40,493 bases of DNA from IMG/VR virus record IMGVR_UViG_3300020159_003753, positions 1 through 40,493 of that record; one strand, 5' to 3'. Below, piece by piece: positions 19,210 to 36,226 of this stretch. The translations under genes and the position numbers were made by a program. Each line of letters begins with the position of its first letter. Within the stretch, counting starts at the first letter, position 1. This DNA is from a virus. The notes under the pieces were generated by a model. That model had not been told where the DNA came from, made no database searches, and saw nothing but the letters and a program-made list of their open reading frames with translations.

Positions 19210-22200
19210 ATGGAATTCAACATAGATCCATATTACGACGATTTCAAAGAGAACGCATTAGATAATAACTACATGAAGATTCTCTTCAAGCCTGGTCGTG
19301 CTGTTCAGGCTCGTGAACTTACACAGATTCAGTCTATTTTGCAGAATCAAATCAAGGCATTTGGTGATCACGTTTTCCAAGATGGCTCTCCAGTTATCGG
19401 CGGAAACATGACACTTGACAATACTTGCAAATGGGTGAAACTCGAAAAGACCTATAACACGGTTGATGTTGATGTTGCTGATTTTGAAAATCGCGTCATT
19501 GTAAATACTTCTGGAAATGTCCAAGCAAAGGTTCTAGCAACTTATTACCCACTTGAAGGCGACCCAACTCTTATGGTTCGCTACATGACAGGAAACGAAT
19601 TCGGCTTTGCAGATACTGTTAGAGTTGCTGGCGAGACAACTGAGGCAAGAACACTATCCACAAACACCAGCGGTCTCGGCACCGTGGTTTCTATCAACGA
19701 AGGTGTCTTTTATGCAGATGGATACTTTGTAAAAGTTCTCGATCAAACTGCTGTTGTAAACGCATATTCTTCTTCTGCAAATGTCAAAATTGGTCTAGAG
19801 ATCAACGAAGAAATTGTTGACAGTGAGATTGACACAACGCTTTTAGACCCAGCACAGTCTTCTTTCAATTACCAAGCTCCTGGTGCTGATCGCTATCAAT
19901 TTAGTTTAGTTCTAACAACACGACCACTTGATACTGTTGTCGACGAATCGAAGTTCTTCGAACTCATGCGTGTTGAGAATGGTCTTATTACCAAACAAGT
20001 CAAATATCCAGTTTATGCTGAACTCGAGAAAACTCTTGCTCGCAGAACATACGATGAATCTGGCGACTACACAGTCAAGCCATTCCGTGCATCAATTGTC
20101 AACGGTCTAGACGATGATCAATACACAATTGCGATCGAACCAGGAAAGGCTTATGTAAAGGGATTCGAGTTTGAAACACTTGGCACAATGAAGGTCAACG
20201 TTGACAAACCTCGTAGCGCAGCAGATGTAAAATCGCTTTCTGAAGTTGACGTCGACATCTCATATGGCAATTATGTATTTGTCACAGGACTTCGCGGAAA
20301 TACAGTAACTTCTGTTGGCTTCCCAAATTTCTTGGCATCAGAAAAGGTTGATCTACACTGCGTTGATACATCATCAGTGAATATCGGTCTAGGTTATAAT
20401 GCAAATACGCAAACGTATCAAAATACAAAAATTGGTTCAGCAGAAATTAGAAACTTTGTTAGATACAGCGCTGCATCAAATACTCAATTCGATTCAAACG
20501 GTGCGTTCAAACTTTATTTGTCAAATATCTCTTTAGAACCAATCGTTGCAAAGGTCGGTGGTGCTTCTGATAATGCTAAATCAATCACGTTTAGCGATAA
20601 ATTTTCTCAGAAAAGCAGCGCCTATGTAAATGCAACAGTAACGATTCTTCCAGTATCACTGACTGCAATCGGTAACGTATCAAAAGCCAACGTATATAAG
20701 GGTGGATACACAGTAAACGCAAACAGTGCAACCGCAAACGTATTCGCTTCTCCAAATATTGCAATTGGTGATGTTGTTCGTATCGGCGATGATGTTCGTG
20801 AGGTTGTATCAATCGATGACCCAAATAATCGATTCACAGTCAATACTGAATTCTCGCAAACAATAATTGGAACTGGTACTGCTGCTCCATTACAAATCTT
20901 TAGACAGAATACATATTCTTCTAATGTTGTAAATCAAAGTAGAACAATCATGCATTATGATGGTTCTACTAAAAAGGCGACGCTCGATCGAGAGTTCGAT
21001 GATGGTGCTAAGATTGGCGGTGCGGTTGCCAACGCTGTAACAGTTGTTCAGCTGAACTTCAAAATTGATCAATTAGAATCAGTTATTTCTGGTAATGTGA
21101 CTTCTAATATTGCTGATGTGAAGCCAAACGTTTCTATGAACGTTTCTGGATATTCAAAATATCTAACAGGCGAGACTTCGTTTGAAGACACACAAAAGAA
21201 AGCATTAGTTTTCAGACTACCAAGAACATATGCAAAGCGATCAACACTTCAGAATGTTGACTATGTGCACAATAAGATTATTTTAGGTCGTAGCAATAAT
21301 TCTACCGTTGGTGAGTTTACAATTTCTCAAGGAAATGGTCTTGAAAGTTATGAGTCAATCCCATGGGCACAATCAACTGGATCTGTTCAAGATAATCTAA
21401 TCGTTGTTGTGAGAAATAATGGTGGAAATACTATCTACTCAAACGGTGAGGTTATTCAACTTACTGCGTCAAACGTAGAAGTCTCTTCATCATCTTTGAA
21501 AGTCAAGACAAATATCGCAGACATAACTGCAGTTGATATTATTGTTTCTGTAAAAGTCAATGATGCAGAGGATAGAATTAGAACTAAGAATTTCTATAGT
21601 AATACTGATTACTCTGGAACTTCTTCTAACTTCACATATCCTGTAGCAGAAAATGGTACTGTGACAGTTACTGTTTCGAATTTTGGAACCGTTGCAAACA
21701 TCAACACAGCGCAAGGACTAGTATTCTTAGGAAACACGCAGTTCAATACTGTTCGCCCTGGCGATTCAATCAGTTTGTTTGTTCCTGATGTCGTAAAGAT
21801 CAATAAGATTCTTGCTGGAAATACAACACATTATCCAGATGCAACTAACGTTCGTGATATTACGAACAATTTCTATGTCGATTATGGTCAAAGAGATGAT
21901 CGCTATGATCATGCCAAGATCATCTTGAAGGATGGATATGATTCACCAATTGCAAAACTATTGGTTCATGTGGATTATTATGAGCATATTTACTCTGAGG
22001 TTTCTGATAAGACAACGTTCTTCTCAGTAGACTCATATCCACAGAGTCACTATACAAATGGAATTATTCCGATCTATACATCTTCAACAGGCACAGTTTA
22101 TAATCTAAGAGATTGTTTAGATTTCAGAGCAACTCAAACATTGGGTGATGGATCAGGTGGGTATACAATTCCTAAAATTCCTTCACCTGATGAAACATCT

Positions 22201-23433
22201 GAACTCTCATATGATTATTATCTACCTCGTATCGACAAACTTGTATTGTCAAAAGATAAAGAGTTCAGAGTTATCAAGGGTAAAGCTGCAGCGCAGCCAT
22301 TACCACCCGCAGATACTGATGATTCAATGACTTTGTATACAATGTATCTACCACCATACGTGGCAGATGTTCGTGAAGTTCGTATGAAGTATCGTGAAAA
22401 TCGTCGCTATACGATGCGTGATATTGCATCGATAGATAAAAGACTTGAGAGAGTTGAGTTCTTCACATCGCTGAACAATGTTGAAAAACTTGCGATGGCA
22501 GATAAAACTCAATATGAAGATGGCACTGAGAAAGAGAAATACGGTATTGTTGGTGAGAATTTCACCAACTTCAACATCGTTGATTATAAGAGCCCAGACT
22601 TCAATGTTGCTCTTGAAAATGGATTCATGATTCCTGCAATGAAGGTTTTCTCCTTGGGACTAAAGACAATCGATAGAGAGAATACAGCACTCAATCGTAA
22701 AACAGTATGCTTGAATTACAGTGAAGAACCAGCAATTGTACAAAGTCTTGCTTCTGATAAGGCAGTTTCTGTTCAACCATTCTTGTTTGGGCAGTTCAAT
22801 GGAAGCATTGTTCTCACCCCAGAAACAGATACTTGGGTTTCAGAAACATTGAAACCAGAAGTTATCACAGTTCCAGAAAAGATTATTGAAAAAGAAACTG
22901 TAATCAGAGAGAAAGTAATTGAGCCACCTGCTCCACCAACTCTACCTCCACCAACAGGAAATAGTGATGTCATTATCATCACCAATCCATTCCTTCCACC
23001 ACCTCCAACAAGCAATGATGATATTATTATCATTGCACCAGAAGATCCATTCAGACCAATTATTGATGATGGCAGAGATAGAAAACCTGCAAATGAAGAT
23101 TTGAATATTCTTCCATCATACCCAGAGTTTGGTGGATTCGAATTTGACCCATGGTTTAGAATTTCCCCAATCAATTTTGGCGTAAATTTCACCTTTGGTG
23201 CAACTGGTTTTAGTGCGGGTAATTTATTCTCAAATGGTGGATTGTTCAATGAATCATATTGGGCACCTGCTCCAATTGAACCAGAAATAACAATTATTCA
23301 ACCTGAGCCAAATTATGAATCATCTGTTCCAACAGTTCTACCTCCATTGAATCTAGATAGTGCAGCCACGCTTGATTCAGGCGGTGGTGGCGGAAAGGCA
23401 GTACTTGAACGCTATGATTATGATAAAGAGTAA
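19210..23433 (+). CDS. Large baseplate/fibre-network protein with DUF4815-like N-terminus
   Basis: A 1407-aa protein. The start FNIDPYYDDFKENALDNNYM, followed by KILFKPGRAVQARELTQIQS, matches the DUF4815 family of virion proteins in marine T4-like phages. Residues about 500-570 hold another copy of the wedge beta module (IGDVVRIGDDVREVVSIDD). After a helical region (DKRLERVEFFTSLNNVEKLA) comes a Pro-rich, acidic linker around residues 1215-1290 (PPAPPTLPPPTGN, FLPPPPTSNDDIIII) and a Phe/Gly-rich end. It probably plays the part of T4 gp10-type peripheral proteins that carry fibres, judged from its position after gp8. The function is inferred; the family match is moderately sure. Confidence 0.8.
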   Translation: MEFNIDPYYDDFKENALDNNYMKILFKPGRAVQARELTQIQSILQNQIKAFGDHVFQDGSPVIGGNMTLDNTCKWVKLEKTYNTVDVDVADFENRVIVNTSGNVQAKVLATYYPLEGDPTLMVRYMTGNEFGFADTVRVAGETTEARTLSTNTSGLGTVVSINEGVFYADGYFVKVLDQTAVVNAYSSSANVKIGLEINEEIVDSEIDTTLLDPAQSSFNYQAPGADRYQFSLVLTTRPLDTVVDESKFFELMRVENGLITKQVKYPVYAELEKTLARRTYDESGDYTVKPFRASIVNGLDDDQYTIAIEPGKAYVKGFEFETLGTMKVNVDKPRSAADVKSLSEVDVDISYGNYVFVTGLRGNTVTSVGFPNFLASEKVDLHCVDTSSVNIGLGYNANTQTYQNTKIGSAEIRNFVRYSAASNTQFDSNGAFKLYLSNISLEPIVAKVGGASDNAKSITFSDKFSQKSSAYVNATVTILPVSLTAIGNVSKANVYKGGYTVNANSATANVFASPNIAIGDVVRIGDDVREVVSIDDPNNRFTVNTEFSQTIIGTGTAAPLQIFRQNTYSSNVVNQSRTIMHYDGSTKKATLDREFDDGAKIGGAVANAVTVVQLNFKIDQLESVISGNVTSNIADVKPNVSMNVSGYSKYLTGETSFEDTQKKALVFRLPRTYAKRSTLQNVDYVHNKIILGRSNNSTVGEFTISQGNGLESYESIPWAQSTGSVQDNLIVVVRNNGGNTIYSNGEVIQLTASNVEVSSSSLKVKTNIADITAVDIIVSVKVNDAEDRIRTKNFYSNTDYSGTSSNFTYPVAENGTVTVTVSNFGTVANINTAQGLVFLGNTQFNTVRPGDSISLFVPDVVKINKILAGNTTHYPDATNVRDITNNFYVDYGQRDDRYDHAKIILKDGYDSPIAKLLVHVDYYEHIYSEVSDKTTFFSVDSYPQSHYTNGIIPIYTSSTGTVYNLRDCLDFRATQTLGDGSGGYTIPKIPSPDETSELSYDYYLPRIDKLVLSKDKEFRVIKGKAAAQPLPPADTDDSMTLYTMYLPPYVADVREVRMKYRENRRYTMRDIASIDKRLERVEFFTSLNNVEKLAMADKTQYEDGTEKEKYGIVGENFTNFNIVDYKSPDFNVALENGFMIPAMKVFSLGLKTIDRENTALNRKTVCLNYSEEPAIVQSLASDKAVSVQPFLFGQFNGSIVLTPETDTWVSETLKPEVITVPEKIIEKETVIREKVIEPPAPPTLPPPTGNSDVIIITNPFLPPPPTSNDDIIIIAPEDPFRPIIDDGRDRKPANEDLNILPSYPEFGGFEFDPWFRISPINFGVNFTFGATGFSAGNLFSNGGLFNESYWAPAPIEPEITIIQPEPNYESSVPTVLPPLNLDSAATLDSGGGGGKAVLERYDYDKE

Positions 23434-23452: not shown

Positions 23453-26400
23453 ATGGCAATTACAACACAGACTGGTAAAGTTGTCGTCGACACAAATTTG
23501 ATCCCTTATATCCGAGGGAGAGAAGTTGAATTTTTGGCTTACAACATGAAGCCTTATAAAACTGCAAGAATGTTCTTCGATGACGTTGCAGTAAATGGTT
23601 TCTGTCAGTCATCAAATAAAGTAGTTATTGATGCCAAAAAGGCACTCAAGTATACAGACAGCAGAAGCGTTTCTTCTGGCGCGAATACAACAATAACTCA
23701 AAATGACTATTTGTATCAAGGTGATAGTTATACAAGTAATACATTTGTTGCCATCATCGAAAGCAGTATTGCAGACGAACTAATTCTCAGAAATATATCT
23801 GGTATGTTCAATGAGGGTGCTCAAGTTTATGCTGCGAATGCAAACACAAAGATTGCATATGCTCGAGCCAATGTTGTTTCTATAAATGATACTGTGACCG
23901 CTGATGTATTTTATCCTGGAGAGGGTGTCATTTCTCTTCTCACAAATTCATATGCCTCAGTTCTAGCAACATCTGGTCCAAATATCGTATACTTGAAACA
24001 AAATTATTTGAATCTAAACATTGCTGCTGTTGCTGGTACTCTTGCAGTTGCTGCAAATTCATATAGTCCAGGAGATATTGTGTATCAGACATCTGACTCA
24101 GCTCAGAGATATGATAGAGCAACATTCCGCGGAATCATGAAGTATATCAATGCACAAGGAATGATTGCAATTGAACCAATTTATGGCGAATTTGAAGCAA
24201 ACTCTAGTTCGTCATATATTTGGAATGCGTCAAATACATCTGCTCCAGCTGTAAATGCAACAAGTTATATTGGAACATCATTCTATTCTACGAACACAAG
24301 TGTAATTCCATTTATCAGAAGTATTCAAAACACCTCTACTGCAAATTGCAGAGTGCTTTCTTATAAGCATTCATCTGGTGTGATTGCAAATAATAATTCT
24401 GACTCTACCACAATTATCTTGAATAACCTTGACAATAGTGGAACAATCAATGGAAATTTGATTTACTTCTGTTCAGGAACTGGTGTTGGTGAGTCAAGAT
24501 CTATTGTAGGCACCTCTACTGTTGCAAATACAACAGTCGTAAGTCTTGGAGGTGCACTAACATTTACACCAGACGCGACAACACGATATTCTATCGGAAA
24601 TCAAATTGTCGATGAGTATGGCGCAGTCTCTGGATTATTTCACATCCCATCGTTCCCTGGATTCAAATTCAAAACAGGAAATCGTATCTTTACGATAACA
24701 GACACTGTTCGTTATAATGATCCAGATTTTGGAATGCGTGCTGCTGCGACTTATGCTGCTTCTGGTATTCTACAAACGACACAGCGTATTCAGACAACAC
24801 CTGTATTATCACCACTACCAGAAACGGATGGTAATTCCGCTGTTGCTCCATCATCTCCTTCTGATAGACCTGCAACTGGAACACCAGTAAAGCCTCCAGT
24901 TACTGGGTCAACAGCATCAACAATTCCAAGAATCCCATTAGGCGATGGCATGGCGCAGACATTCTTTGTGCCAAAGCCAAAATCAAATAAGCAGGATTAT
25001 GGTCTATACTGCACCTCTATTGATCTTTTCTTCAAGAGCAAGCCATCTCTTGCAACTTATGAAAAGAATTCTGTAACTTTGACAAGAGGCTCTCTACAAC
25101 TTCCTGTAACTGTTCGAATTGCAGAAGTAGAAAACGGATATCCAACAAAGAAGTATCTTGCATCTAAGTCTGTAAATGCAAAGGATGTAAAGGTATCATC
25201 TCTCCCAAGCACAAATGATCCAACAACAAGCACAAAGTTTACATTTGACGATCCTGTGTTCCTAGAACCAAATCGCGAGTATGCAATCCTTGTTGGCTCA
25301 GACTCTCCAGATTATGAGTTGTTCATTGCTGAACTTGGTGCTGATGTTCTTGGAACTGGTACAACATCTACTGTTCGTATTTCAGAACAGCCGTATGCTG
25401 GATCATTCTTCCGATCACAAAACTCAACGACATGGACGCCATATCAAAATCAAGATTTGATGTTTGTTCTAAACAAGGCAGTTTTTGATAGTTCTGGCAG
25501 TGTAACGTTCAATCTAGATGCTCCACCAGTTGCGAATATCGATATTGATCGTGTGATGCTTACATCAACTGATTTGAGTTTCCCTGTTGGACTTATCGAT
25601 TATAAAATGAAAGGCGTGTATTCTGCAACTCTAGATCGCGAAACCATTGGTGTTGACCTTGAACCAAATAGACCAGTTGAGTTTGGAACATTGCTTGATA
25701 AGTCTGCTAAAAACTCAATCAACAGAAGAAAATTGATTCAAGGAAACGCAAATAGCGTTCTACTAACTGTCGATATGTCATCTTCTGATTCCGATATTTC
25801 ACCAATATTGAATTTAGAGAGACTTGCAATTACTGCAGCGACCTTCTCAATCAATAATGCTGGATTGTCAAATACTAAAATTGCAATCACAAACTATGGT
25901 ACTGGATATACAAATACTCCAAATATCGTAGTTGGCAGCTCAAACAATACTGTGAATACTGCAGCACTTGCATTCAAGAGCGCATATTTCCCAAATCCAA
26001 CATACAATATTGGATTATATGCGATCACTATCTCTGGTGGCGGTGGATCTGGTGCAGCTGGATTTGCTGTTGCAAATACTGACGGTGCAAATAAGATCAA
26101 TGCGATTGTTCTGACTCATATGGGTAGTGGTTATGTAACTACTCCAACAGTGGCTGTCAATGCACCAACAAATCCAACTGGAAATGTAACTGCAACTGCA
26201 GTTGTTTCTGGTGAAGATGGAAAGAGTGGTGGTAATATTCTTGCGAAATATGTTACAAGAGAAATTGTTCTAGAAGATGGATTCGAATCTGGAGACTTGA
26301 GAGTATTCATGGACGCAATTCGTCCAACAGGAACTGATGTTCTCGTGTACTATAAAGTTCGTTCTGGAGATGATCCAGAAACAATTGGAGATAAGAGCTG

Positions 26401-26635
26401 GAAGTTGATGAGCAAGGTGAAAGATGTTTATTCTAGAAATACAAATACCTTTATTGGGCTAGAATATCGACCATCTCTTGATGAAAATAAAATCAACTAT
26501 ATTGAGAATGGCGTTTCTTATCCAATCGGTGGAACATTCAAGCACTTCCAAATCAAGGTGTGTATGATTACTAGCGACCAATCATTGATTCCAAGAGTCA
26601 AAAATCTAAGAATCACTGCTGTACCAGAGGGTTGA
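23453..26635 (+). CDS. Large virion structural protein, probably baseplate periphery or fibre attachment
   Basis: A 1060-aa protein. The N-terminus DTNLIPYIRGREVEFLAYNM, followed by KPYKTARMFFDDVAV, is a start I associate with large structural proteins beside the DUF4815 gene in marine T4-like phages. Residues about 470-500 are a Pro/Ser/Thr linker (SDRPATGTPVKPPVTGS). The second half is beta-rich with GTGYTNTPNIVVGSS and MGSGYVTTPTVAV modules (residues about 810-910), also found in the gp6 and gp7 homologues. It ends in a compact domain (FKHFQIKVCMITSDQSLIPR). No enzyme motif is seen. Its exact role is unknown. It is followed after one base by the 75-aa gene. Confidence 0.78.
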   Translation: MAITTQTGKVVVDTNLIPYIRGREVEFLAYNMKPYKTARMFFDDVAVNGFCQSSNKVVIDAKKALKYTDSRSVSSGANTTITQNDYLYQGDSYTSNTFVAIIESSIADELILRNISGMFNEGAQVYAANANTKIAYARANVVSINDTVTADVFYPGEGVISLLTNSYASVLATSGPNIVYLKQNYLNLNIAAVAGTLAVAANSYSPGDIVYQTSDSAQRYDRATFRGIMKYINAQGMIAIEPIYGEFEANSSSSYIWNASNTSAPAVNATSYIGTSFYSTNTSVIPFIRSIQNTSTANCRVLSYKHSSGVIANNNSDSTTIILNNLDNSGTINGNLIYFCSGTGVGESRSIVGTSTVANTTVVSLGGALTFTPDATTRYSIGNQIVDEYGAVSGLFHIPSFPGFKFKTGNRIFTITDTVRYNDPDFGMRAAATYAASGILQTTQRIQTTPVLSPLPETDGNSAVAPSSPSDRPATGTPVKPPVTGSTASTIPRIPLGDGMAQTFFVPKPKSNKQDYGLYCTSIDLFFKSKPSLATYEKNSVTLTRGSLQLPVTVRIAEVENGYPTKKYLASKSVNAKDVKVSSLPSTNDPTTSTKFTFDDPVFLEPNREYAILVGSDSPDYELFIAELGADVLGTGTTSTVRISEQPYAGSFFRSQNSTTWTPYQNQDLMFVLNKAVFDSSGSVTFNLDAPPVANIDIDRVMLTSTDLSFPVGLIDYKMKGVYSATLDRETIGVDLEPNRPVEFGTLLDKSAKNSINRRKLIQGNANSVLLTVDMSSSDSDISPILNLERLAITAATFSINNAGLSNTKIAITNYGTGYTNTPNIVVGSSNNTVNTAALAFKSAYFPNPTYNIGLYAITISGGGGSGAAGFAVANTDGANKINAIVLTHMGSGYVTTPTVAVNAPTNPTGNVTATAVVSGEDGKSGGNILAKYVTREIVLEDGFESGDLRVFMDAIRPTGTDVLVYYKVRSGDDPETIGDKSWKLMSKVKDVYSRNTNTFIGLEYRPSLDENKINYIENGVSYPIGGTFKHFQIKVCMITSDQSLIPRVKNLRITAVPEG

Positions 26636-26865: not shown

Positions 26866-28077
26866 ATGGCAAATACAATAAATGTTGCAGAAGTAACAAC
26901 AAGCAATACATTCAATCAATGGAGAATATCAACAAATCTGTTGAGAGATGATGTAAATGAAATTGCTCGTGGTGATTTTTACAAGTACGCTGGAAATGTT
27001 ATCATTGAGAGTGGTTATGTTCGCATAAACAATGCCAGCGGTGGTGTTGTACTTGATGTCAAAGATGACACGAATATCGACGGCACTCTCACAGTATTCA
27101 ATATCGAAGTTGACAATTCTTCGAATCACCTTTATGTCGACGCTGGTGATATCAAATTTCGCCGCATGGGTGCAACGGATCTATTTGCAGTCAATACAAA
27201 TACTGTATTCTATGGTGCAAATGTCACAGTTGCTAATGCTACGCATGGAACACTCAATGTAAATGTTCAAACTGTGAGAATCAACGTTGGCGCTACGATG
27301 AACATCGCTAATGCCTCTGGTGGTGTGACACTCAACATCCATCCACACACATATATTTTTGCAAATGTAAACGTTACTGGTACACTGAATGTAACTAATA
27401 ATGTATTTGCATATAATCTAAATGTTGCAAGTAATACTGCAACAGGCAATCTAGTTGTTCGTCAATTAGCGAATATTTCAAACGCAAATATAACAAACGC
27501 ATACATAAAGACCTTGACAGTTGAAGATCCTATTCTTGCACCATCTGTAAGTGATAGTGACAAGTACGTTCTTCGATTCTCATCATCTTCTGGTGGTGAT
27601 GGATATTTCCGTGTTCGCCGTGGACAGACTGCAGGAACAGCTAATGCTGATCTTCACTGGGATGAAACCGCAGGTTCCTGGAAGATTGAATACAATAATC
27701 TCCCAGCAAATGTTGTTATGGGCAACATTACTGCAAACTTCAAATCTACAAAGGATTATATTGAGAGTTCAACTACTGGTGGAGCAATTTCAGTTGATTT
27801 GACATCATCAAATTGGTTCAAGTATACACTGAACGCTTCCTCAGTATTTACGTTTAGAAATGCACCATCAAATGGTCTTTCTGTGACATTCTCTCTTATT
27901 CTAATTCAAGATGGTACAGGTGGCAGAACTATAAGTTTTGCTAACACGGTTTATTGGTCTGGTGGATCAATTCCTCCTGCAACCACTGGAGCAAGTAGCA
28001 AAGATCTTTGGACATTTACAACATACGACGGTGGTTCAACATATGTTGGAACATTGGCAGTAAAAGATTTCAGATAA
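26866..28077 (+). CDS. Beta-rich tail fibre-like protein
   Basis: A 403-aa protein. The start TSNTFNQWRISTNLLRDDVN resembles the opening of marine phage fibre or whisker proteins. The middle (residues about 50-210) is made of short, Asn/Val/Thr-rich strand repeats (NITNAYIKTLTVED, VNVTGTLNVTNNVFAYNLNV), suggesting a trimeric beta-helix shaft. The C-terminus (SGGRTISFANTVYW-like core, GGSIPPATTGASSKDLWTFT, YDGGSTYVGTLAVKDFR) resembles receptor-binding tips that recur in marine phage fibres. It follows the 75-aa gene by one base and precedes the first YNPG-repeat gene by 9 bases. The fibre role is inferred from fold-like composition. Confidence 0.72.
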   Translation: MANTINVAEVTTSNTFNQWRISTNLLRDDVNEIARGDFYKYAGNVIIESGYVRINNASGGVVLDVKDDTNIDGTLTVFNIEVDNSSNHLYVDAGDIKFRRMGATDLFAVNTNTVFYGANVTVANATHGTLNVNVQTVRINVGATMNIANASGGVTLNIHPHTYIFANVNVTGTLNVTNNVFAYNLNVASNTATGNLVVRQLANISNANITNAYIKTLTVEDPILAPSVSDSDKYVLRFSSSSGGDGYFRVRRGQTAGTANADLHWDETAGSWKIEYNNLPANVVMGNITANFKSTKDYIESSTTGGAISVDLTSSNWFKYTLNASSVFTFRNAPSNGLSVTFSLILIQDGTGGRTISFANTVYWSGGSIPPATTGASSKDLWTFTTYDGGSTYVGTLAVKDFR

Positions 28078-28086
28078 TAGCATAAA

Positions 28087-30303
28087 ATGCCAAAAAGAAT
28101 TGATGAGTTAGTCAAGACATGGGTTTCTGGCGCGCAGCGTGGAAGCACTGTCTTCAATACTCATGGAACAATGAGTGTGCCATATGGCAGAAACAGAATG
28201 ACTGTTTCTGGTCGTGGTGGTTCAGGAAATTGCCTTGTTCCAGGCAATATTGCAACGTATACTGGAAATAGTGCGGCGTCTTATAATGTTGGTTCTCCAG
28301 CATCATACAATCCTGGATCTGCTGCAACATATACAGGAAATAGTGCCAATTACAATTTTGGTAATCCTGCATCATATACAGGAAACACAGAAATACCTGC
28401 TAGTGGTGGGAATAATGCAAATTATAATCCTTGTGTGACAACATATAATCCACCTCTCATTTCGGGATATAATGCAGGTGGTTTCGGTGGAGCATTATAC
28501 AATACAGGAAATATTGCTGGCTACACTATCGGAAATATTTCTGGATACAATACAGGAGTTGGCACAACATATAATGCGCCAACTCCAGGTGGTTATAATC
28601 CTAGAACAATTAGTGGATACAACTCAGGATCTGCTTCATATACACCTGGTAGCATAGCAGGTTATGTGCCTGGTACAAATAATATCGCATCATACTCTGG
28701 TAATAGTGCTGCATATAACACTGGCAATCCAGTTGGATATACTGGTAACACAATTTCTGCATATAATCCAGGAAACCCAGCAACATACAATCCAGCGCAA
28801 GTGAATTGGTATGGTGTCATTATTGAGACATTCTTCGATGAGGGATATTATTACTATCAACAAATTGCATTTGAAGGAAATGGAACGTCAATTGGATGTC
28901 CACTACCAAATGATGGTAGTGTGGTTACGCCAACCAACTTCCCCAATTTTCCAGGATTTGTTGTTGGTGGTGGTCAAATGGTTTATTTCTATGACCTCAA
29001 CTTCTCATGTTCTCCAGCATTTCCTGGAAACCCAGCAACATACAATCCAGGAACTGCTGTTTATAATCCTGGAAACCCAAGCAGTTATAACCCAACAAAT
29101 ATTTCTGGTTATAATGCAGGTTCTGCATCAACATATAATGCTGGCACAATCTCCGCATATACTGGCAATATTGTTGGTGGATATACTGGAAATAATGCAA
29201 ATTATAATACTGGCAATCCTTCTGGATATACTGCTGGTAACGCAAATGCATACAGCGATAACAACTCAATATACAATCAGCCAACCGCTAATTATAATGC
29301 AGGCAATATCACAAGTTACCAAGGAAACACTGCAGTTTATACACCTGGTAATGTTGCGGGTCTAGATTGTTCTGGAGCAACAATTACTGGATATAATCCA
29401 ATTGGTGGATCAAATCCATTGTATAATCCAGGTAACCCTGCATCATATACTGACAATAATATAAGTGGATATAATCCTGGCGCCCAGACATACAATACTG
29501 GAAATGTTGATTATAATCCTGGCACTCCATCTGGATATACAGGAAATAACGTAGCATCATATAATGCTGCTGGAAATGCAAATTATAATACTGGATCAAC
29601 AGCAACATATAATCCAACAAGTATTGCTAATTATAATCCTGGCGTTCCTGGAACTTATACAGGAAACAATATTGACACATATAACTCAGCAGGAAATAAT
29701 CCAGTATATAATACTGGAACTCAAGTCTATAATGCTGGAAGTCCAAGTAATAGTGGCGGTAATCCTGCAACTTACAATGAAGGCGTATGTGCCTCATATA
29801 GCGGAAACAACATTGCTAGTTATAACCCACCAAGTGGTGGTGGCGGTAACTGTTGCTTTGTTGCTGGAACTCTTGTTACGATGTCAGATCTCACGACTAA
29901 AGCGATTGAGGAGATCGTTATTGGAGACAAGATTCTATCATTCAATGAATCAACCAACGAACTTGAAACCAATGAGGTTGAGACATTACTTGCTCCAATT
30001 CGAACAGAAATCTTTGAATATATTCTTGAAACTGGTCAAGTTATTCGTGCTACAGATGATCACCCAATGTTTGTACAAAATAAGGGATGGGCTTCGCTCA
30101 ATCCAGCAAAGACGTTATCAAGTTATAAGAACATGACAAATATCCACTTTGTAGAGGTTGGCGATCAATTCATCGATATGAATCAAAATGCATTGAAGAT
30201 TGTTTCTATTGGAAGTGTAAATACAACAGAGAAAGTTTATACCTTTACCAATAAAAATAAGTCTAGCCCAAACTATTTTGCTAATGGAGTTCTTGTAGGC
30301 TAA
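28087..30303 (+). CDS. Tyr-Asn-Pro-Gly repeat fibre, N-terminal half, ending in a Hint domain
   Basis: A 738-aa protein. Residues 1-50 (VKTWVSGAQRGSTVF, then VSGRGG) form a cap shared with the 760-aa protein at 33304. Residues about 52-585 are 7-8-residue units such as ASYNPGS, ATYTGNS and ANYNTGN, each built round a Tyr. They are interrupted at about residues 238-315 by a non-repeat insert rich in Tyr and Phe (FFDEGYYYYQQIAFEGNGTS). Residues 590-738 are a Hint (hedgehog/intein) domain (CFVAGTLV, TDDH, NYFANGVLVG). The stop TAA overlaps the ATG of the next gene, whose protein goes straight on with the same repeats. I read the two genes as one fibre split at the end of an intein-like domain. 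It is probably a tail fibre or virion adhesin; the function is not proven. Confidence 0.85.
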   Translation: MPKRIDELVKTWVSGAQRGSTVFNTHGTMSVPYGRNRMTVSGRGGSGNCLVPGNIATYTGNSAASYNVGSPASYNPGSAATYTGNSANYNFGNPASYTGNTEIPASGGNNANYNPCVTTYNPPLISGYNAGGFGGALYNTGNIAGYTIGNISGYNTGVGTTYNAPTPGGYNPRTISGYNSGSASYTPGSIAGYVPGTNNIASYSGNSAAYNTGNPVGYTGNTISAYNPGNPATYNPAQVNWYGVIIETFFDEGYYYYQQIAFEGNGTSIGCPLPNDGSVVTPTNFPNFPGFVVGGGQMVYFYDLNFSCSPAFPGNPATYNPGTAVYNPGNPSSYNPTNISGYNAGSASTYNAGTISAYTGNIVGGYTGNNANYNTGNPSGYTAGNANAYSDNNSIYNQPTANYNAGNITSYQGNTAVYTPGNVAGLDCSGATITGYNPIGGSNPLYNPGNPASYTDNNISGYNPGAQTYNTGNVDYNPGTPSGYTGNNVASYNAAGNANYNTGSTATYNPTSIANYNPGVPGTYTGNNIDTYNSAGNNPVYNTGTQVYNAGSPSNSGGNPATYNEGVCASYSGNNIASYNPPSGGGGNCCFVAGTLVTMSDLTTKAIEEIVIGDKILSFNESTNELETNEVETLLAPIRTEIFEYILETGQVIRATDDHPMFVQNKGWASLNPAKTLSSYKNMTNIHFVEVGDQFIDMNQNALKIVSIGSVNTTEKVYTFTNKNKSSPNYFANGVLVG
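28240..29838 (+). repeat. YNPG/YSGN-type coding repeat array, interrupted by an insert
   Basis: The DNA encodes about 60 degenerate units of 7-8 residues centred on Tyr, for example ASYNPGS, NYNTGNP and GYTGNN. Many DNA copies contain TATAATCCAGG-like 10-12-mers because YNPG is coded with similar codons. The array breaks at about 28800-29030 for a non-repeat insert. It is a protein repeat, not a CRISPR or intergenic repeat. Confidence 0.9.
29851..30300 (+). other. Hint (hedgehog/intein) domain without the C-terminal HN of an intein
   Basis: The protein segment opens CCFVAGTLVTMSDLTT; Cys590 is the expected N-terminal nucleophile. The block-B motif is RATDDHPMF (Thr656, His659). The last block is YFANGVLVG, directly before the stop codon. 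Active inteins usually end in His-Asn followed by Cys, Ser or Thr. Here Val-Gly and a stop replace them, so full splicing is not expected. Known family behaviour suggests only the N-to-S acyl shift at Cys590, leading to cleavage or transfer of the repeat part to a nucleophile. Confidence 0.88.
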
Positions 30304-31688
30304 TGGCATATAATCCAGGAAATCCAGCAACATATAACCCGACTACTGCGGTTTACAATTCACCAATACCAGGTGGAGTGTACTGGTCAGCATCATTTTA
30401 TGTCGCTGCGGTTGACCTTGATGTTTTATTTCCTAACGATCCAGTTGGTCCTTATCCACAAAATGGTATGGGACCATTACCAAGTCCGCTAAATGCATAT
30501 CTCAATTACGCAGATCATGGTGATGGAAGCATAGGTCCAACAGCTGTTTATGTTTACTATACTTCTTTTGGATTTACTCCTCAAACTCCTGGCACAGATA
30601 CAGGAGCATACAATGCTGGTAATCCTGCAACATATTCTGGAAATACAGAAATACCACCAGAAGTTCCAGGTAATGCAGTATACAATCCAGGAACATGCGC
30701 AACATATTCTGGAAATAACACTGCATCATACAATCCAGTAGTTACAAACTACACTGGAAACAATTGGACTGGTGGCTATAACCCAACGAATATTTCTGGT
30801 TACAATGCTGGAAGTGGAATTGTGAACTGGAACGCAACAATTTACTATGAAGTAGAAAAAAGAATTTCTGCTCCTGGACAAGACCTAGAGTATTCAGTAT
30901 TTGTAAGTGATACAAACTATGCTTCTGGTTCAAATCCAACTTGCCCAGCGCCAGCATCAACTACAAATGGCAACATAAACAGCGTATCTGTTGGATTACA
31001 ATATTATGAAGTCGATTATGTTTGCACACCATCACCAGCAACAAATACAGCCAACTACAACGTTGGTAGTCCAGCAAACTATATTGGAAACACTGAGAAT
31101 TATAACGCTGGCAATCCTGCAACCTATTCAGGCAATAATATTGATGTGTATAATTCTGGTGGAAATCCAGCAACATATAATGCGGGCACTCCATCTGGGT
31201 ATACTGGTAACAATTCTGGTGGATATTCTGGAAATACTGGAACTGGAAGTTATGTCAGCAACAGCGCAAATTATAACTCAGGAAATCCAGCATCATACAG
31301 CGGTAACAATATCAGCGGCTACAATGCTGCTCCTCCACCAAGTTACAATGTTGGAAACCCAGCAACTTATCAAAGCAACACAATCAGTGGATATAATGTA
31401 GGAAATATTGCAACATATACAGGAAACTTCACTGGAAGTTATTCTGGTAATTTTGCATCATCTTATAATCCAGGAAGCGCAAGTACATATAACTTCCCAA
31501 TTCCAGGAACTCCTGGAGAGCCTGGATATGCCTTTGGTGTATACTTCCCAGGTGGTTCTGTTTGTGCTCCAGGAACTTATGTTTCACCTCAATCTATCAG
31601 TTACTATTTCGAGGGTCAAGAAATTGACTACAAGAATTATCCAGTAGTCGTTCCTCCAGGTGGACAAATAGTTGTAACAGTCGAATAA
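30303..31688 (+). CDS. Tyr-Asn-Pro-Gly repeat fibre, C-terminal half
   Basis: A 461-aa protein opening directly with repeats (MAYNPGNPATYNP) and no N-terminal cap. It contains two non-repeat inserts: residues about 20-95 (GGVYWSASFYVAAVDLDVLF) and residues about 176-255 (VNWNATIYYEVEKR). It ends in a cap (FGVYFPGGSVCAPGT; YPVVVPPGGQIVVTVE) shared with the 760-aa protein at 33304 (YPVTVPSGGQIVVKIE). It starts in TAATG at the stop of the Hint gene, so translation is probably coupled. Residues of the upstream protein without its Hint domain, plus this one, equal a longer relative of the 760-aa fibre. It is followed by a leader and an oxygenase gene. Fibre role inferred. Confidence 0.82.
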   Translation: MAYNPGNPATYNPTTAVYNSPIPGGVYWSASFYVAAVDLDVLFPNDPVGPYPQNGMGPLPSPLNAYLNYADHGDGSIGPTAVYVYYTSFGFTPQTPGTDTGAYNAGNPATYSGNTEIPPEVPGNAVYNPGTCATYSGNNTASYNPVVTNYTGNNWTGGYNPTNISGYNAGSGIVNWNATIYYEVEKRISAPGQDLEYSVFVSDTNYASGSNPTCPAPASTTNGNINSVSVGLQYYEVDYVCTPSPATNTANYNVGSPANYIGNTENYNAGNPATYSGNNIDVYNSGGNPATYNAGTPSGYTGNNSGGYSGNTGTGSYVSNSANYNSGNPASYSGNNISGYNAAPPPSYNVGNPATYQSNTISGYNVGNIATYTGNFTGSYSGNFASSYNPGSASTYNFPIPGTPGEPGYAFGVYFPGGSVCAPGTYVSPQSISYYFEGQEIDYKNYPVVVPPGGQIVVTVE

Positions 31689-31734
31689 ATAAGTTATAAT
31701 TCTATATTCATGCACTAATGCAGTGGAGTTTGTT
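31683..31734 (+). promoter_or_regulatory. Late-promoter-like leader of the first oxygenase gene
   Basis: AATAAATA at 31684-31691 matches the cyanophage-type late motif NATAAATA and is followed by GTTATAAT (31693-31700). GTGGAG at 31723-31728 is a good ribosome binding site 6 bases before ATG 31735. The whole block is nearly repeated at 35581-35626 before the second oxygenase, which supports a shared function. The GTG inside GTGGAG is unlikely to be the start. Confidence 0.65.
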
Positions 31735-32298
31735 ATGCCTCAAGTCATCAAATATAATCGCGTTCTATCTAAATTTGCTGTCGCGTCTGACTTTCTCAAT
31801 CAAGAAGAAGTTGATATTCTTCTTAGTATTGAGAAAAAACTGATGTTTGGTAAAGACCAACAAAATAGCAAAAATAAAGCAGACATCGCAATCGTCACTC
31901 CAAACCAAGAAACGCAATGGGTGTTCGATAAATTTTCTTCAGTTATTGGTAGAATCAATATCGATTTCTTTATGTACGATATTGATGGATTTGACTCATT
32001 TCAATTTGTAAAGTATAAAAAGGGGCAAGATTGCGGTTGGCATTACGATGTTGACTTTGCATATATGAATTGGGAACGCAAAATTTGTGCCTCAATTATT
32101 CTTACTGATCCAGAAGAATATTTGGGCGGTGAACTTGAAGTTATGTCAACAGCTGATCCAGAAGAAGTTGTTCCACTAAAACCTGCACTCGGCGATATAG
32201 TGTTTTATGCACCTTGGATGCCAGCTAGGGTTTCTCCAGTAACATCTGGAATTCGTAGAACTCTCAACACTTGGGTCATGGGCAAGAGAGGTTGTTAA
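31735..32298 (+). CDS. Prolyl-4-hydroxylase-like 2OG-Fe(II) oxygenase, missing the distal His
   Basis: A 187-aa protein of the double-stranded beta-helix P4Hc type. Metal ligands expected are HxD (WHYDVD: His103, Asp105) and a distal His. The paralogue at 35627 has WMPHRV, but here the sequence is WMPARV, Ala164. The 2-oxoglutarate-binding Arg174 (SGIRRTL) is kept. Loss of one iron ligand should weaken or end normal hydroxylase activity, so this copy may be inactive, regulatory or altered in chemistry. It follows a YNPG-repeat gene and a promoter-like leader, and is joined to the glycosyltransferase gene by a TAATG overlap. The start is ATG 31735, preceded by GTGGAG. The family match is strong; the substrate is inferred. 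Confidence 0.88.
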   Translation: MPQVIKYNRVLSKFAVASDFLNQEEVDILLSIEKKLMFGKDQQNSKNKADIAIVTPNQETQWVFDKFSSVIGRINIDFFMYDIDGFDSFQFVKYKKGQDCGWHYDVDFAYMNWERKICASIILTDPEEYLGGELEVMSTADPEEVVPLKPALGDIVFYAPWMPARVSPVTSGIRRTLNTWVMGKRGC

Positions 32299-33260
32299 TG
32301 AAAATATTTGTCAGCATTGTCTCTTATAGAGACCCACTACTCTATCAAACTGTAAAGAATTTGATGGACAATCAATCGCAGCTGACAAAGGTCACATATG
32401 GGATTTTTGAGCAAACTGATTTCCCAGAAAGTTTAGAGTCAATGCATCCAGAAATTACTCAACATAAAAATGTTCGGTATAAAAGAATTGACGCGAAATA
32501 TTCAGACGGTGTCGGTTGGGCAAGACATCTAAATTCACTTCAAGTGGACGACGAAGATTTTTATTATCAAGTCGATTCTCACATGCTGTTTGATAAAAAT
32601 TGGGATCGATATCTAATCAACGATTTCAAACTTGGGATTCAGCAACATCAAACAGATCGTATCATTATTGATGCGAATTGCGGCAACTTTAGAATGCAAG
32701 AAGATGGAACTCCATGGATCGATCGTCATGGATCAATTACGGTAAAGGCAGGTTATTGGTCTTTCCACGAAAACTATATTCTTGGAGCGCATGGAGAGTT
32801 TAGAGAAGCAACTACAGATTTCTTACATCCAACAATTCATCTATTTGCAGGTAACTTCTTTACTCATTCTGATTGGGTTCGAAATGTTGGGATGAATCCA
32901 AGAATCTTCTTCGAAGGAGAAGAACAATACATGACTTTGGCTTCGATCGCTGCTGGATATAAACTCTGCGCGCCTAGACAAATTCACTGCTATCACCTGC
33001 AGGATACGCATAATTATATTACAAAACAAGATGTAAATCGAGTCGTTCCATCTGAACAAATTCAAAGAAATCGTGAAAAATCGAAAAAAGAATTCCAGAT
33101 GTTCTTAGACAGTCTCAGTGATGAATTCTTCGAAGAATACCGTAAATATTCTGGGGTAGATTATATCAATCGAAAACTTGAGAATCGTGCGATATCAAGA
33201 AGTATTATTCTTCCTCCAAACGTGGTGAACGATTGGGAGATTCCTGATCGATACGATTGA
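32298..33260 (+). CDS. GlcNAc-type glycosyltransferase (PF11397/GT60-like), candidate hydroxyproline glycosylator
   Basis: A 320-aa protein starting at ATG 32298 in TAATG; an in-frame ATG at 32271 lies inside the previous gene and is not preferred. KIFVSIVSYRDPLLYQTVKN opens it like other GlcNAc (PF11397) proteins, followed by GVGWARHLN, YYQVDSHMLFDKNWD with the DxH-type motif Asp93-Ser-His95, FAGNFFTHSDWVRNVG, FFEGEEQYMTL and HCYH (230-233), a possible further metal ligand. The founding member, Dictyostelium Gnt1 (GT60), adds GlcNAc to a hydroxyproline of Skp1 made by a prolyl 4-hydroxylase. Here it is coupled to P4H-like genes and placed between two Pro-Gly repeat fibres, so glycosylation of fibre hydroxyproline is the natural guess. 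The donor sugar and acceptor are not shown by sequence. Confidence 0.87.
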   Translation: MKIFVSIVSYRDPLLYQTVKNLMDNQSQLTKVTYGIFEQTDFPESLESMHPEITQHKNVRYKRIDAKYSDGVGWARHLNSLQVDDEDFYYQVDSHMLFDKNWDRYLINDFKLGIQQHQTDRIIIDANCGNFRMQEDGTPWIDRHGSITVKAGYWSFHENYILGAHGEFREATTDFLHPTIHLFAGNFFTHSDWVRNVGMNPRIFFEGEEQYMTLASIAAGYKLCAPRQIHCYHLQDTHNYITKQDVNRVVPSEQIQRNREKSKKEFQMFLDSLSDEFFEEYRKYSGVDYINRKLENRAISRSIILPPNVVNDWEIPDRYD

Positions 33261-33303: not shown

Positions 33304-35586
33304 ATGCCACTACATACAGACCTGTTGAAAAGTTGGGTTGGGTCCGCTTTGCGCACAACGACCACTTTCAATAACACTTCCAGCATAACAATTCCATACG
33401 GAAGGTTCAACGCTCTTGTTTCTGGGCGTGGTGGTACTGGCACAAATGCAACTCCTGGCACTGCTGCAACTTATTCTGGAAATAGTGCTGCATCTTACAA
33501 TTCAGGAAGCCCAGCGACTTATAATGTCGGCAACGTCGCCTCGTATTCTGGAAATACTGTTTCTGGATACAATGCAGGAAATCCAGCATCATATAATCCT
33601 CCAGTTCCTGCAAGTTATACAGGAAACAACGCAAACTATAATTCTGGAAATCCAGCATCATATAGCGGCAACAATCCTGCTTCATATTCTGGAAATAATG
33701 CCAACTATAATGCTGGTAGTGCTGCATCATATTCAGGAAACAACATTGCTTCATATAATCCTCGCAATGTCGCTGGATATAATGCTGGTAATATTGCATC
33801 GTACAATCCCACAAATATTGCTGCATATTCTGGAAATAATGCAAACTATAATGCTGGAACTCCTGCATCATATAATCCTCAGACTATATCCGCATACAAT
33901 CCAGGTTCTGCAAACTATAACCCTGGATCACCAGCATCATATTCTGGAAACAATCTTGCTGGATACTCTGGTAACAGTGCAAATTATAATGCAGGCAACG
34001 TAGCATCTTACAATCCGCAAAACGTAGCAGCATATAATCCAGGATCTGCAAATTACAATGCTGGTAATGCTGCAACATATAATGCACCAACTGTGGCCAA
34101 CTACAATCCAGGTTCCGCAAACTATAACGCTGGAACTGTAGCATCATATAATCCAGGAAGTATTGCTTCTTACAATCCACGCAACGTTGCTGGATACTCT
34201 GGTAACAACGCAAACTTCAGTCCAGGAAACGTTGCATCATATAACCCACGCAACGTTGCTGGATATTCTGGAAACAATCAAAATACAAATCCAGCCAATC
34301 CAGCATCCTGGATTTCAATGTTTTATGTGAATGATACTGGAATGGCTTATTTGTTTGGGGATGAAATAGTTTATATTGGACCAACAGCTTATCCGCAAAG
34401 TGGTGGTGGTTCTGCGCCTGGACCAACCAATGCTTATGGATCTACAAATGAGCTCGGTACTGTTAACGTGTATATTACATACCAGCAAATTCCAGGAGAA
34501 CCAGGAAATCCGACTGGTGTTTATAATCCAGGATCTGCAAATTACAATGCTGGTAATGCTGCAACCTATAACTCACCAACTGTAGCAAATTATAATGCAG
34601 GTTCAGCAAATTACAACGCTGGCACTGCTGCAAGTTATTCTGGTAACACTATTGCTTCGTATAATCCACGCAATGTGGCAGGATATTCTGGCAATAATGC
34701 AAACTTCACACCAGGAAATGTTGCATCATATAATACTCGCAACATTGCTGGCTATTCTGGAAATGATGCAAACTATAACACTGGAACAGTAGCATCATAC
34801 AATCCTCGTAACGTAGCAACATATAATCCAGGATCAGCAAATTACAATACTGGCTCACCAGCATCATATTCTGGAAACAATCTTGCTGGTTATTCTGGAA
34901 ACAGTGCGAACTATAACACTGGAACACCAGCATCGTATAATCCAAGAAACGTTTCCACATACAATCCAGGAAGCGCAAACTACAATGCTGGTAGTGCTGC
35001 AACATATTCTGGTAACAACATTTCTGGTTATAATGTTGGCAACGCAGCAACATATAATCCTGGATCAATTGCTTCGTATTCTGGAAATAATCTTGCCAAT
35101 TATAATGCAGGCAATCCAGCAACATACAATCCTGGAAATCCTGCAACATACACAGGAAATAATTTGGCAAATTATAATGCTGGCAATCCAGCAAGTTATA
35201 ATCCTCCTGTGCCTGCATCCTATAGTGGAAATAACATTTCAGGATACAATGCTGGCAATCCAGCAACATACAATCCACAAAATCCTGCATCATATTCTGG
35301 CAATACAGCTGCTACATATAATGCAGGTAGTGTGGCAACATACAATCCACCAATTCTTGGTACTCCTGGAACCGCAACAAATGTTCTTGGTGTATATTTC
35401 CCAGGTGGCGCTGGTGCTTCAGCAAATTATAATGCAGCACCAGGAAGTACAATTGCTGGATACAATGCAGGTCAACTAGCACCATATGTGCCAGAAACAC
35501 CTGTTGATACTAATGTTTACCCAGATTCAGCAAACTACCCAGTAACGGTTCCATCTGGTGGACAAATAGTTGTAAAGATTGAATAA
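33304..35586 (+). CDS. Complete Tyr-Asn-Pro-Gly repeat fibre (760 aa)
   Basis: Residues 1-45 are the cap (LLKSWVGSALRTTTTF, IPYGRFNALVSGRGG) shared with the 738-aa protein. About 85 repeat units of 7-8 residues follow (ASYNPGS, NYNAGNP, GYSGNNA). One non-repeat insert lies at about residues 335-405 (WISMFYVNDTGMAYLFGDE). The C-terminal cap (LGVYFPGGAG; YPVTVPSGGQIVVKIE) matches the 461-aa protein. It has no Hint domain, so it represents the unsplit form. The composition is almost only Tyr, Asn, Gly, Ala, Ser, Pro; Pro usually precedes Gly (NPG), the sequence prolyl 4-hydroxylases prefer. Upstream (33270-33277) ACTAAATA is one mismatch from the late motif. It is probably a surface fibre; the mechanism is unknown. 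Confidence 0.85.
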   Translation: MPLHTDLLKSWVGSALRTTTTFNNTSSITIPYGRFNALVSGRGGTGTNATPGTAATYSGNSAASYNSGSPATYNVGNVASYSGNTVSGYNAGNPASYNPPVPASYTGNNANYNSGNPASYSGNNPASYSGNNANYNAGSAASYSGNNIASYNPRNVAGYNAGNIASYNPTNIAAYSGNNANYNAGTPASYNPQTISAYNPGSANYNPGSPASYSGNNLAGYSGNSANYNAGNVASYNPQNVAAYNPGSANYNAGNAATYNAPTVANYNPGSANYNAGTVASYNPGSIASYNPRNVAGYSGNNANFSPGNVASYNPRNVAGYSGNNQNTNPANPASWISMFYVNDTGMAYLFGDEIVYIGPTAYPQSGGGSAPGPTNAYGSTNELGTVNVYITYQQIPGEPGNPTGVYNPGSANYNAGNAATYNSPTVANYNAGSANYNAGTAASYSGNTIASYNPRNVAGYSGNNANFTPGNVASYNTRNIAGYSGNDANYNTGTVASYNPRNVATYNPGSANYNTGSPASYSGNNLAGYSGNSANYNTGTPASYNPRNVSTYNPGSANYNAGSAATYSGNNISGYNVGNAATYNPGSIASYSGNNLANYNAGNPATYNPGNPATYTGNNLANYNAGNPASYNPPVPASYSGNNISGYNAGNPATYNPQNPASYSGNTAATYNAGSVATYNPPILGTPGTATNVLGVYFPGGAGASANYNAAPGSTIAGYNAGQLAPYVPETPVDTNVYPDSANYPVTVPSGGQIVVKIE
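33450..35355 (+). repeat. Long YNPG/YSGNN coding repeat array
   Basis: Degenerate 21-24-bp DNA units encode 7-8-residue protein units with one Tyr each. Some stretches are nearly identical at a distance, for example the block encoding YNPGSANYNAGNAATYN occurs near 34036 and again near 34525, suggesting internal duplication. The array is broken once by a non-repeat insert at about 34300-34520. Confidence 0.9.
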
Positions 35587-35626
35587 ATATAGTATAATTT
35601 GATATTGCAAATGTAGTGGAGTGAAT
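35581..35626 (+). promoter_or_regulatory. Late-promoter-like leader of the second oxygenase gene
   Basis: AATAAATA at 35582-35589 overlaps the stop codon of the repeat fibre and is followed by GTATAATTTGATATT. GTGGAG at 35616-35621 lies 5 bases before ATG 35627. The leader matches the one at 31683-31734 in order and much of the sequence (GAATAAATA, TATAATT, ATATT, AGTGGAGT), so the two oxygenase genes seem to carry copies of the same control region. Confidence 0.65.
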
Positions 35627-36226
35627 ATGGCATTCAAAGTGCAAAAGTATGTTCGACGCTTAGAACAATATTGCGTCGTAAATAAAGCATTCACTGAAGA
35701 TGAGTGCGACAAGATCATCGATCTTGAAGATCTACAAAAGTTCCAAAAAGGTGGCGTTGGAAGCGGACCGCAAGGAAAGGTGGATAAGAAGGCTCGTGAT
35801 AGTGATATCATGTGGCTTATGCAAGATCAAAACTCGGATTGGATTTTCCAAAAATTTGGTCATCTAGTTTCTCTTGTCAACTATGATCACTTCATGTATA
35901 ATATCGATGGCTTCGAAGCCTTTCAGTATACTGTATATAAAGCCAAAAATAAACAACACTATGATTGGCATATCGATGCTGATAATACTAGCGCCAACTA
36001 CATTCGTAAAATAAGTGCATCTATTATTCTTACAGACCCTGACGATTATGATGGCGGAGAATTGCAAGTCGTTCCTCATGGACGAGTTGATGATCCATTC
36101 AGTGTAAAATCAAAACGTGGTGATGTTGTATTCTTTTCTTCTTGGATGCCCCATCGTGTTTCTCCAGTAACCTCTGGTATTCGCAAATCATTGGTATGTT
36201 GGGTTATGGGCGAAAGGACTCATTGA
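35627..36226 (+). CDS. Prolyl-4-hydroxylase-like 2OG-Fe(II) oxygenase with complete metal site
   Basis: A 199-aa paralogue of the 31735 protein (shared blocks YNIDGFEAFQ, KISASIILTDPDDYDGGEL, SPVTSGIRKSL). All expected ligands are present: His115-x-Asp117 (WHIDAD), His176 (WMPHRV) and the 2-oxoglutarate-binding Arg186, ten residues after the distal His as in P4H-type enzymes. It should hydroxylate a protein or peptide using O2, Fe(II) and 2-oxoglutarate. Proline in the NPG repeats of the gene just upstream is the best candidate. The ATG at 35627 is preferred over GTG at 35621, which belongs to GTGGAG. Next gene starts one base after the stop. Substrate inferred. Confidence 0.9.
   Translation: MAFKVQKYVRRLEQYCVVNKAFTEDECDKIIDLEDLQKFQKGGVGSGPQGKVDKKARDSDIMWLMQDQNSDWIFQKFGHLVSLVNYDHFMYNIDGFEAFQYTVYKAKNKQHYDWHIDADNTSANYIRKISASIILTDPDDYDGGELQVVPHGRVDDPFSVKSKRGDVVFFSSWMPHRVSPVTSGIRKSLVCWVMGERTH

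What the first reader, a model, noticed from the sequence alone, without database searches (positions are those of the whole stretch)
29851..30330. Intein-like Hint domain splits a fibre gene, with a stop-restart where splicing would rejoin
The Hint domain of the 738-aa protein ends YFANGVLVG then TAA, and the ATG of the next gene overlaps that TAA (TAATG). The next protein resumes the same repeats (MAYNPGNPATYNP) and ends in the same cap as the unsplit 760-aa paralogue. So the Hint domain occupies an intein's place, lacks the C-terminal His-Asn needed for splicing, and the missing C-terminal cleavage is replaced at gene level. The first half could be cleaved at Cys590 or linked by thioester to a nucleophile, perhaps on the virion or host surface.
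Basis: partly seen in the sequence, partly recalled or inferred. Interest (0 to 1): 0.85.

Follow-up and report, generated by a model that had tools for sequence, protein, structure and literature searches.

The report
Phage fibre ending in intein-like domain
A tail-fibre protein of an uncultured contractile-tailed phage ends in a self-processing, intein-like domain that stops exactly where the last catalytic amino acid should be, and the rest of the fibre is made as a separate protein; relatives show that phages repeatedly put such domains at break points in tail proteins, which nobody appears to have tested.

Summary
P0001 (28087-30303) ends in a complete HINT-fold domain (Cys590-Gly738), and the next fibre gene P0002 (30303-31688) starts at TAATG. 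The predicted fold is closest to BIL (bacterial intein-like) domains. The stop falls at the position of the terminal Asn, and Gly738 sits where the penultimate His should be. Three distinct relatives with the Hint (L001, L002, L006) keep Cys1, [TS]DDH, the missing His-Asn and the 1-bp overlap. So it is not a frameshift or assembly error.

The Hint does not cause the split. Relative L003 is split twice without a Hint, and L019 is split with a degenerate one. TAATG is ordinary here (5 of 25 same-strand junctions). No fused fibre was found. The predicted pair of states does exist in another tail protein, VrlC: continuous with one or two His-Asn-bearing Hints in some phages, and cut into two genes exactly after a Hint-like domain in Stenotrophomonas phage DLP_6.

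Best reading: a C-terminal, splicing-incompetent, BIL-like domain under purifying selection. It probably does the first acyl-shift step at Cys590 and cleaves itself off or transfers the fibre to a nucleophile. Catalysis is inferred, not shown.

The parts
28087..30303 (+). P0001, fibre N-part: N-cap, YN-G repeats, Gly linker, C-terminal HINT domain; TAA stop
28087..28230 (+). N-terminal cap (MPKRIDELVKTW...VPYGRNRMTVSGRGGSGN), shared with P0003 and relatives
29833..29850 (+). Gly-rich linker SGGGGN before the Hint
29851..29853 (+). Cys589, the -1 residue; a Cys-Cys pair is also seen in L001, L002, L006, L009 and L014
29854..30300 (+). HINT domain Cys590-Gly738 (149 aa); closest fold is that of BIL domains
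30052..30063 (+). Block B motif T656-D-D-H659 (SDDH in L002/L006)
30268..30303 (+). Blocks F/G: ...YFANGVLV-G then TAA; Gly738 at the His position, stop at the terminal Asn position
30301..30305 (+). TAATG stop/start overlap, conserved in L001, L002, L006 and L007
30303..31688 (+). P0002, fibre C-part: resumes YN-G repeats, carries the C-cap; starts MAYNPGN
33304..35586 (+). P0003, unsplit 760-aa paralogue with both caps and no Hint
23453..26635 (+). P0007, VrlC-like C-terminal part without a Hint; homologue of the Hint-bearing VrlC proteins

Best explanation
P0001 carries a C-terminal, splicing-incompetent HINT domain of the bacterial intein-like (BIL)/Hedgehog working type. Shown: complete HINT fold by prediction; Cys1 and the block B His present; terminal Asn absent because translation stops at that very position; the state is old, conserved and under purifying selection; the C-terminal part of the fibre is encoded by the next, overlapping gene. 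Inferred: Cys590 attacks the preceding peptide bond (N-S acyl shift) and the resulting thioester is resolved by water or another nucleophile, so that the repeat region is freed from the Hint with a Gly-rich, Cys-ended C-terminus, or is joined to a nucleophile. C-terminal cleavage is not needed because stop-restart already delivers the C-part as its own chain.
For: Fold: AF2 model best matches BIL2 6y75 (Z 22.6, rmsd 2.0, 144 aligned), BIL 2lwy (Z 19.6), then inteins (up to 18.9) and Hedgehog 1at0 (16.4); model residue 158 (Gly738) pairs with residue 142 of BIL2, whose last residue is N143. Conservation: L001, L002 and L006 keep Cys1, [TS]DDH, the missing His-Asn and TAATG while the Hint has diverged to about 50% identity; the four form one clade (support 0.986). 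Purifying selection on the Hint: dN/dS 0.10 (window-L001) and 0.05 (L002-L006), lower than the rest of the fibre. C-terminal Hints without His-Asn in other phage proteins (L009, L010, L011, L013) also keep Cys1 and TDDH; the L010/L013 loss looks independent, as their nearest relative L056_c still ends VHN plus 5 residues. VrlC has continuous His-Asn Hints followed by K or R, not C/S/T (L048, L052, L054), while DLP_6 has VrlC cut into two CDS at the same point. A review describes BIL domains as autocleaving, with B-type sharing intein motifs except the C-terminal one (PMC7765530).
Against: No biochemical data exist for this family. L019 has a HINT-fold module without Cys1 at the same place and L003 has none, so the chemistry is not indispensable for the fibre. 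The DLP_6 Hint-like domain is from another subfamily (no block B His, His-Asn kept plus 8 residues), so it is an analogy, not the same lineage. Cys1 and block B His could be kept for folding. Only a few independent sequences exist.
Confidence: 0.55

Rival explanations
1. Inert relic or structural tip: a HINT fold recruited as a C-terminal module or spacer of the fibre piece, without autocatalysis.
For: The same position carries a Hint, a degenerate Hint without Cys1 (L019) or a Pro/Gly-rich EFESEV tail (L003), as if modules are exchangeable.
Against: Cys1 and [TS]DDH are kept in all four window-type Hints and in L009-L013 despite deep divergence, while His-Asn is free to go; dN/dS is low.
Confidence: 0.22
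2. Ligation in trans: the thioester at Cys590 is attacked by the free N-terminus of P0002 (Ala or Ser after Met removal), rejoining the two fibre halves by aminolysis.
For: Stop-restart supplies a free N-terminus next to the Hint; P0002-like proteins start MA or MS; a BIL domain is reported to ligate without side-chain nucleophiles (Aranko 2013, cited in PMC7664689).
Against: No Cys and no conserved Ser/Thr at the P0002 N-terminus; L003 and L019 keep the pieces apart without a catalytic Hint, so rejoining is not required.
Confidence: 0.1
3. Covalent coupling to the host surface or to another virion protein through the thioester at the fibre tip.
For: C-terminal Hints after Gly-rich linkers also occur in a Gp38-type adhesin (L014) and, as degenerate forms, in proteins of jumbo phages.
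Against: No acceptor is known; nothing in the sequence points to one.
Confidence: 0.1
4. Assembly or sequencing frameshift in a normal, splicing intein.
For: Repeats resume after the junction.
Against: Same junction in four other contigs; L002/L006 end VLTY*, not VLVG*; no His-Asn in either frame at the junction.
Confidence: 0.01

Closest known systems
Bacterial intein-like (BIL) domains, e.g. C. thermocellum BIL (2lwy) and T. thermophila BUBL1 BIL2 (6y75/6tmm)
   Same: Fold, Cys1, TxxH, small size without endonuclease, no +1 nucleophile; related phage VrlC Hints end His-Asn followed by K/R like A-type BIL
   Different: Terminal His-Asn missing because the gene stops there; the domain is at the C-terminus of a phage fibre; the C-flank is a separate overlapping gene
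Hedgehog/Hog C-terminal autoprocessing domain
   Same: C-terminal HINT domain that needs only the N-S acyl shift; no terminal Asn chemistry required
   Different: No sterol-recognition region; acceptor unknown; phage tail protein
Class 1 (mini-)inteins, e.g. Ssp DnaB, gp41-1
   Same: Same fold and N-terminal half of the active site
   Different: No His-Asn, no C-extein in the same chain, no +1 Cys/Ser/Thr: cannot splice
Split VrlC of Stenotrophomonas phage DLP_6
   Same: Gly-rich linker plus C-terminal Hint-like domain, 1-bp stop/start, and the C-part of the same protein as the next CDS
   Different: Different Hint subfamily: keeps His-Asn and 8 residues, lacks the block B His; different protein

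Membership tests
Intein (class 1) | Cys/Ser at position 1 | tested here: met
   Cys590
Intein (class 1) | Block B TxxH | tested here: met
   T656DDH659
Intein (class 1) | Penultimate His and terminal Asn | tested here: not met
   ends VLVG*, stop at the Asn position
Intein (class 1) | C-extein in the same polypeptide with +1 Cys/Ser/Thr | tested here: not met
   Stop codon; P0002 is in another frame and starts MAYN
Split intein | N- and C-intein halves on separate genes | tested here: not met
   Hint is whole (aligns to residues 1-142 of BIL2) and P0002 begins with repeats, not a C-intein
HINT superfamily | HINT fold and N-terminal motifs | tested here: met
BIL domain, A-type | Conserved C-terminal His-Asn | tested here: not met
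   His-Asn absent in the window, L001, L002 and L006
BIL domain, B-type | Intein motifs shared except the C-terminal one; N-cleavage | tested here: inconclusive
   C-terminal motif absent as described in PMC7765530, but no B-type profile was compared; cleavage not testable with these tools
Hedgehog Hog domain | C-terminal Hint plus sterol-recognition region | tested here: not met
   Protein ends with the Hint; no further region

The most novel reading that the evidence does not exclude
Phages use HINT domains as programmable joints in tail proteins. The same break is made by an internal His-Asn Hint (post-translational) in some phages and by a stop-restart after a truncated Hint (translational) in others; the remaining N-terminal thioester chemistry then joins the fibre tip to its partner fibre chain or to the cell surface.
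Probability: 0.12. Interest if true: 0.9.

Novelty: new variant of a known kind. Interest (0 to 1): 0.62.

Why it matters
Autoprocessing at the end of a phage fibre would be a new way to mature or anchor receptor-binding proteins. The comparison of VrlC (continuous with one or two Hints, or cut into two genes at the same point) makes the trade between protein-level and gene-level cleavage directly testable in a cultured phage, DLP_6. I found no paper on it in the open-access library searched; most subscription journals are not held there.

Tried and rejected
blastn of the locus against 50,697 phage records: no match. tblastn of the Hint finds mostly true inteins in phage helicases, terminase, RNR and RecA-like proteins. 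The N-cap has no match in cultured phages. A genome-contig scan gave only distant Hints, not examined further. Frameshift or readthrough joining the two ORFs: no conserved shift site was seen by eye and no His-Asn would be restored; rejected. Split intein: rejected. Profile comparison of the L019 domain with the Hint was weak (hhalign probability 4.5), but its predicted fold is HINT (pLDDT 74; Foldseek best 2lwy 8e-6). The best-scoring Pfam family for the Hint is AXH (9e-11, above cut-off), but all top structural matches shown are HINT. Literature searches on phage Hint domains gave nothing on this architecture.

Full report
Observation. The window is the tail locus of a contractile-tailed, T4-type phage: baseplate tail-tube cap, wedge, hub/lysozyme and further wedge genes, a VrlC-like protein in two CDS (19210-23433 and 23453-26635), a tail-fibre protein (26866-28077), then the fibre genes in question. 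P0001 (28087-30303) has an N-terminal cap, many YN-G repeats, a GGGGN linker and a C-terminal Hint. P0002 (30303-31688) starts in the TAATG overlap, resumes the repeats and carries the C-terminal cap. P0003 (33304-35586) has both caps in one chain.

What the domain is. Pfam Hint passes its cut-off and Intein_splicing matches nearly full length, below its cut-off; the intein N-terminal model also matches weakly. A profile of three Hints finds BIL domains in the PDB at 4e-10. AlphaFold2 with nine sequences gives pLDDT 84 and pTM 0.80. The best solved relatives are the T. thermophila BIL2 (Z 22.6, rmsd 2.0) and the C. thermocellum BIL (Z 19.6), followed by mini-inteins and Hedgehog. The last residue, Gly738, pairs with residue 142 of BIL2, whose terminal Asn is 143. 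So the stop codon takes the place of the terminal Asn and Gly that of the penultimate His. Cys590 and T656-D-D-H659 are present.

Is it an artefact? No. L001 (IMG/VR 3300005662_000279), L002 (3300047564), the near-identical L007 (3300044591) and L006 (3300035670) have the same architecture, the same missing His-Asn and the same TAATG. The L002/L006 type ends VLTY* and its Hint is only about half identical to the window's. All four distinct Hints form one clade (0.986), so the loss of His-Asn is old and has been kept. dN/dS is 0.10 and 0.05 in the two usable pairs, below that of the rest of P0001 and of P0002.

What the split is. The split does not depend on the Hint. In L003 the fibre is in three pieces, the first two ending in Pro/Gly-rich tails with EFESEV. 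In L019 two pieces carry, at or near the end, a module without Cys1 that is predicted to have a HINT fold. A tree of the neighbouring glycosyltransferase shows Hint, degenerate Hint and no Hint scattered among close relatives, with weak support inside. More distant phages (L029/L030) have a single unsplit short version. The 1-bp overlap itself is common here, 5 of 25 junctions. So the site is an exchangeable end of a fibre piece, and the Hint is one of the modules placed there.

Wider pattern. Hints recur in phage tail and structural proteins, usually behind Gly- or Pro-rich linkers: a Gp38-type adhesin (L014), L009, and proteins with two or three tandem Hints (L010-L013, L043, L056). A second, degenerate family with His-Asn but no block B His ends proteins in L032 and in Xanthomonas, Erwinia and Stenotrophomonas phages. 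Most telling is VrlC. In L054 it is one continuous chain with one Hint and in L048/L052 with two tandem Hints, each ending His-Asn followed by K or R, which suits BIL-like cleavage rather than splicing. In phage DLP_6 VrlC is two CDS joined by TAATG; the first ends in a Gly-rich linker plus a Hint-like domain, and the second begins about where the chain resumes after the Hint in L054 (DLP6_C residue 12 aligns with L054 1520; DPLAQSF at 1518).

How it probably works. In C-terminal phage Hints that have lost His-Asn (window clade, L009, L010-L013), Cys1 and [TS]xxH are always kept. That asymmetry is what one expects if only the first step, the N-S acyl shift, is used, as in Hedgehog and in N-terminal cleavage by BIL domains (PMC7765530; PMC7664689). 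The likely outcome is release of the fibre N-part from the Hint, or transfer to a nucleophile. Which nucleophile is not known. Rejoining to P0002 is possible but not required, since relatives without a catalytic Hint keep separate pieces. All catalysis here is inference.

Membership. It is a HINT-superfamily domain. It is not a class 1 intein and not a split intein; it fails the A-type BIL criterion (no His-Asn); B-type BIL is the nearest described category but was not tested with a profile. It works like a C-terminal autoprocessing domain if it works at all.

Novelty. A new variant of a known kind: BIL-like domain, C-terminal, in a phage fibre, truncated at the Asn codon with the C-part in the next overlapping gene. 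The VrlC comparison raises the interest, because it suggests that post-translational and translational cleavage are interchangeable at such joints. All records found of the fibre family are from metagenomes, and nothing has been tested at the bench.

Noticed in passing
window 31723-32298, 32271-33260, 35621-36226: Two 2OG-Fe(II) oxygenases (PF13640) and a GlcNAc-type glycosyltransferase (PF11397) lie between and after the Pro/Tyr/Asn/Gly-rich fibre genes, suggesting that the fibres may be hydroxylated and glycosylated.
   Followed up: no
window 38166-39998: Collagen-like Gly-Pro-Gln repeat protein of 610 aa; possibly another substrate for the oxygenases.
   Followed up: no
window 19210-23433 and 23453-26635: The window's own VrlC is in two CDS, cut at a different point from DLP_6; the first ends in a Pro-rich region and GGGGG.
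   Followed up: partly
L042/L060 (Stenotrophomonas phage DLP_6), record 157096-164237: VrlC is cut into two CDS (TAATG) right after a C-terminal Hint-like domain.
   Followed up: yes
L048, L052, L054: Continuous VrlC tail proteins with one or two tandem in-frame Hints ending His-Asn-Lys/Arg.
   Followed up: partly
L056 2502-5225: Protein ending in three tandem Hints, preceded by a degenerate Hint-like stretch ending LVHN.
   Followed up: no
L014 5017-6465: Gp38-type tail-fibre adhesin (PF05268) with a C-terminal Hint ending THNSNNC.
   Followed up: no
L041 5420-5839 (Xanthomonas phage PhiXhv-12): After a protein ending in a Hint-like domain, the next 1-bp-overlapping gene looks like a stand-alone Hint-like domain.
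   Followed up: no
L003 8001-11635: Fibre in three pieces; the first two end in the same Pro-rich, Gly-rich EFESEV tail, so an end module has been copied within one genome.
   Followed up: no
window 29854-30180: Pfam AXH (ataxin-1/HBP1 module) scores 9e-11 on the Hint and HBP1 AXH structures appear weakly in the PDB profile search; unexplained cross-match.
   Followed up: no
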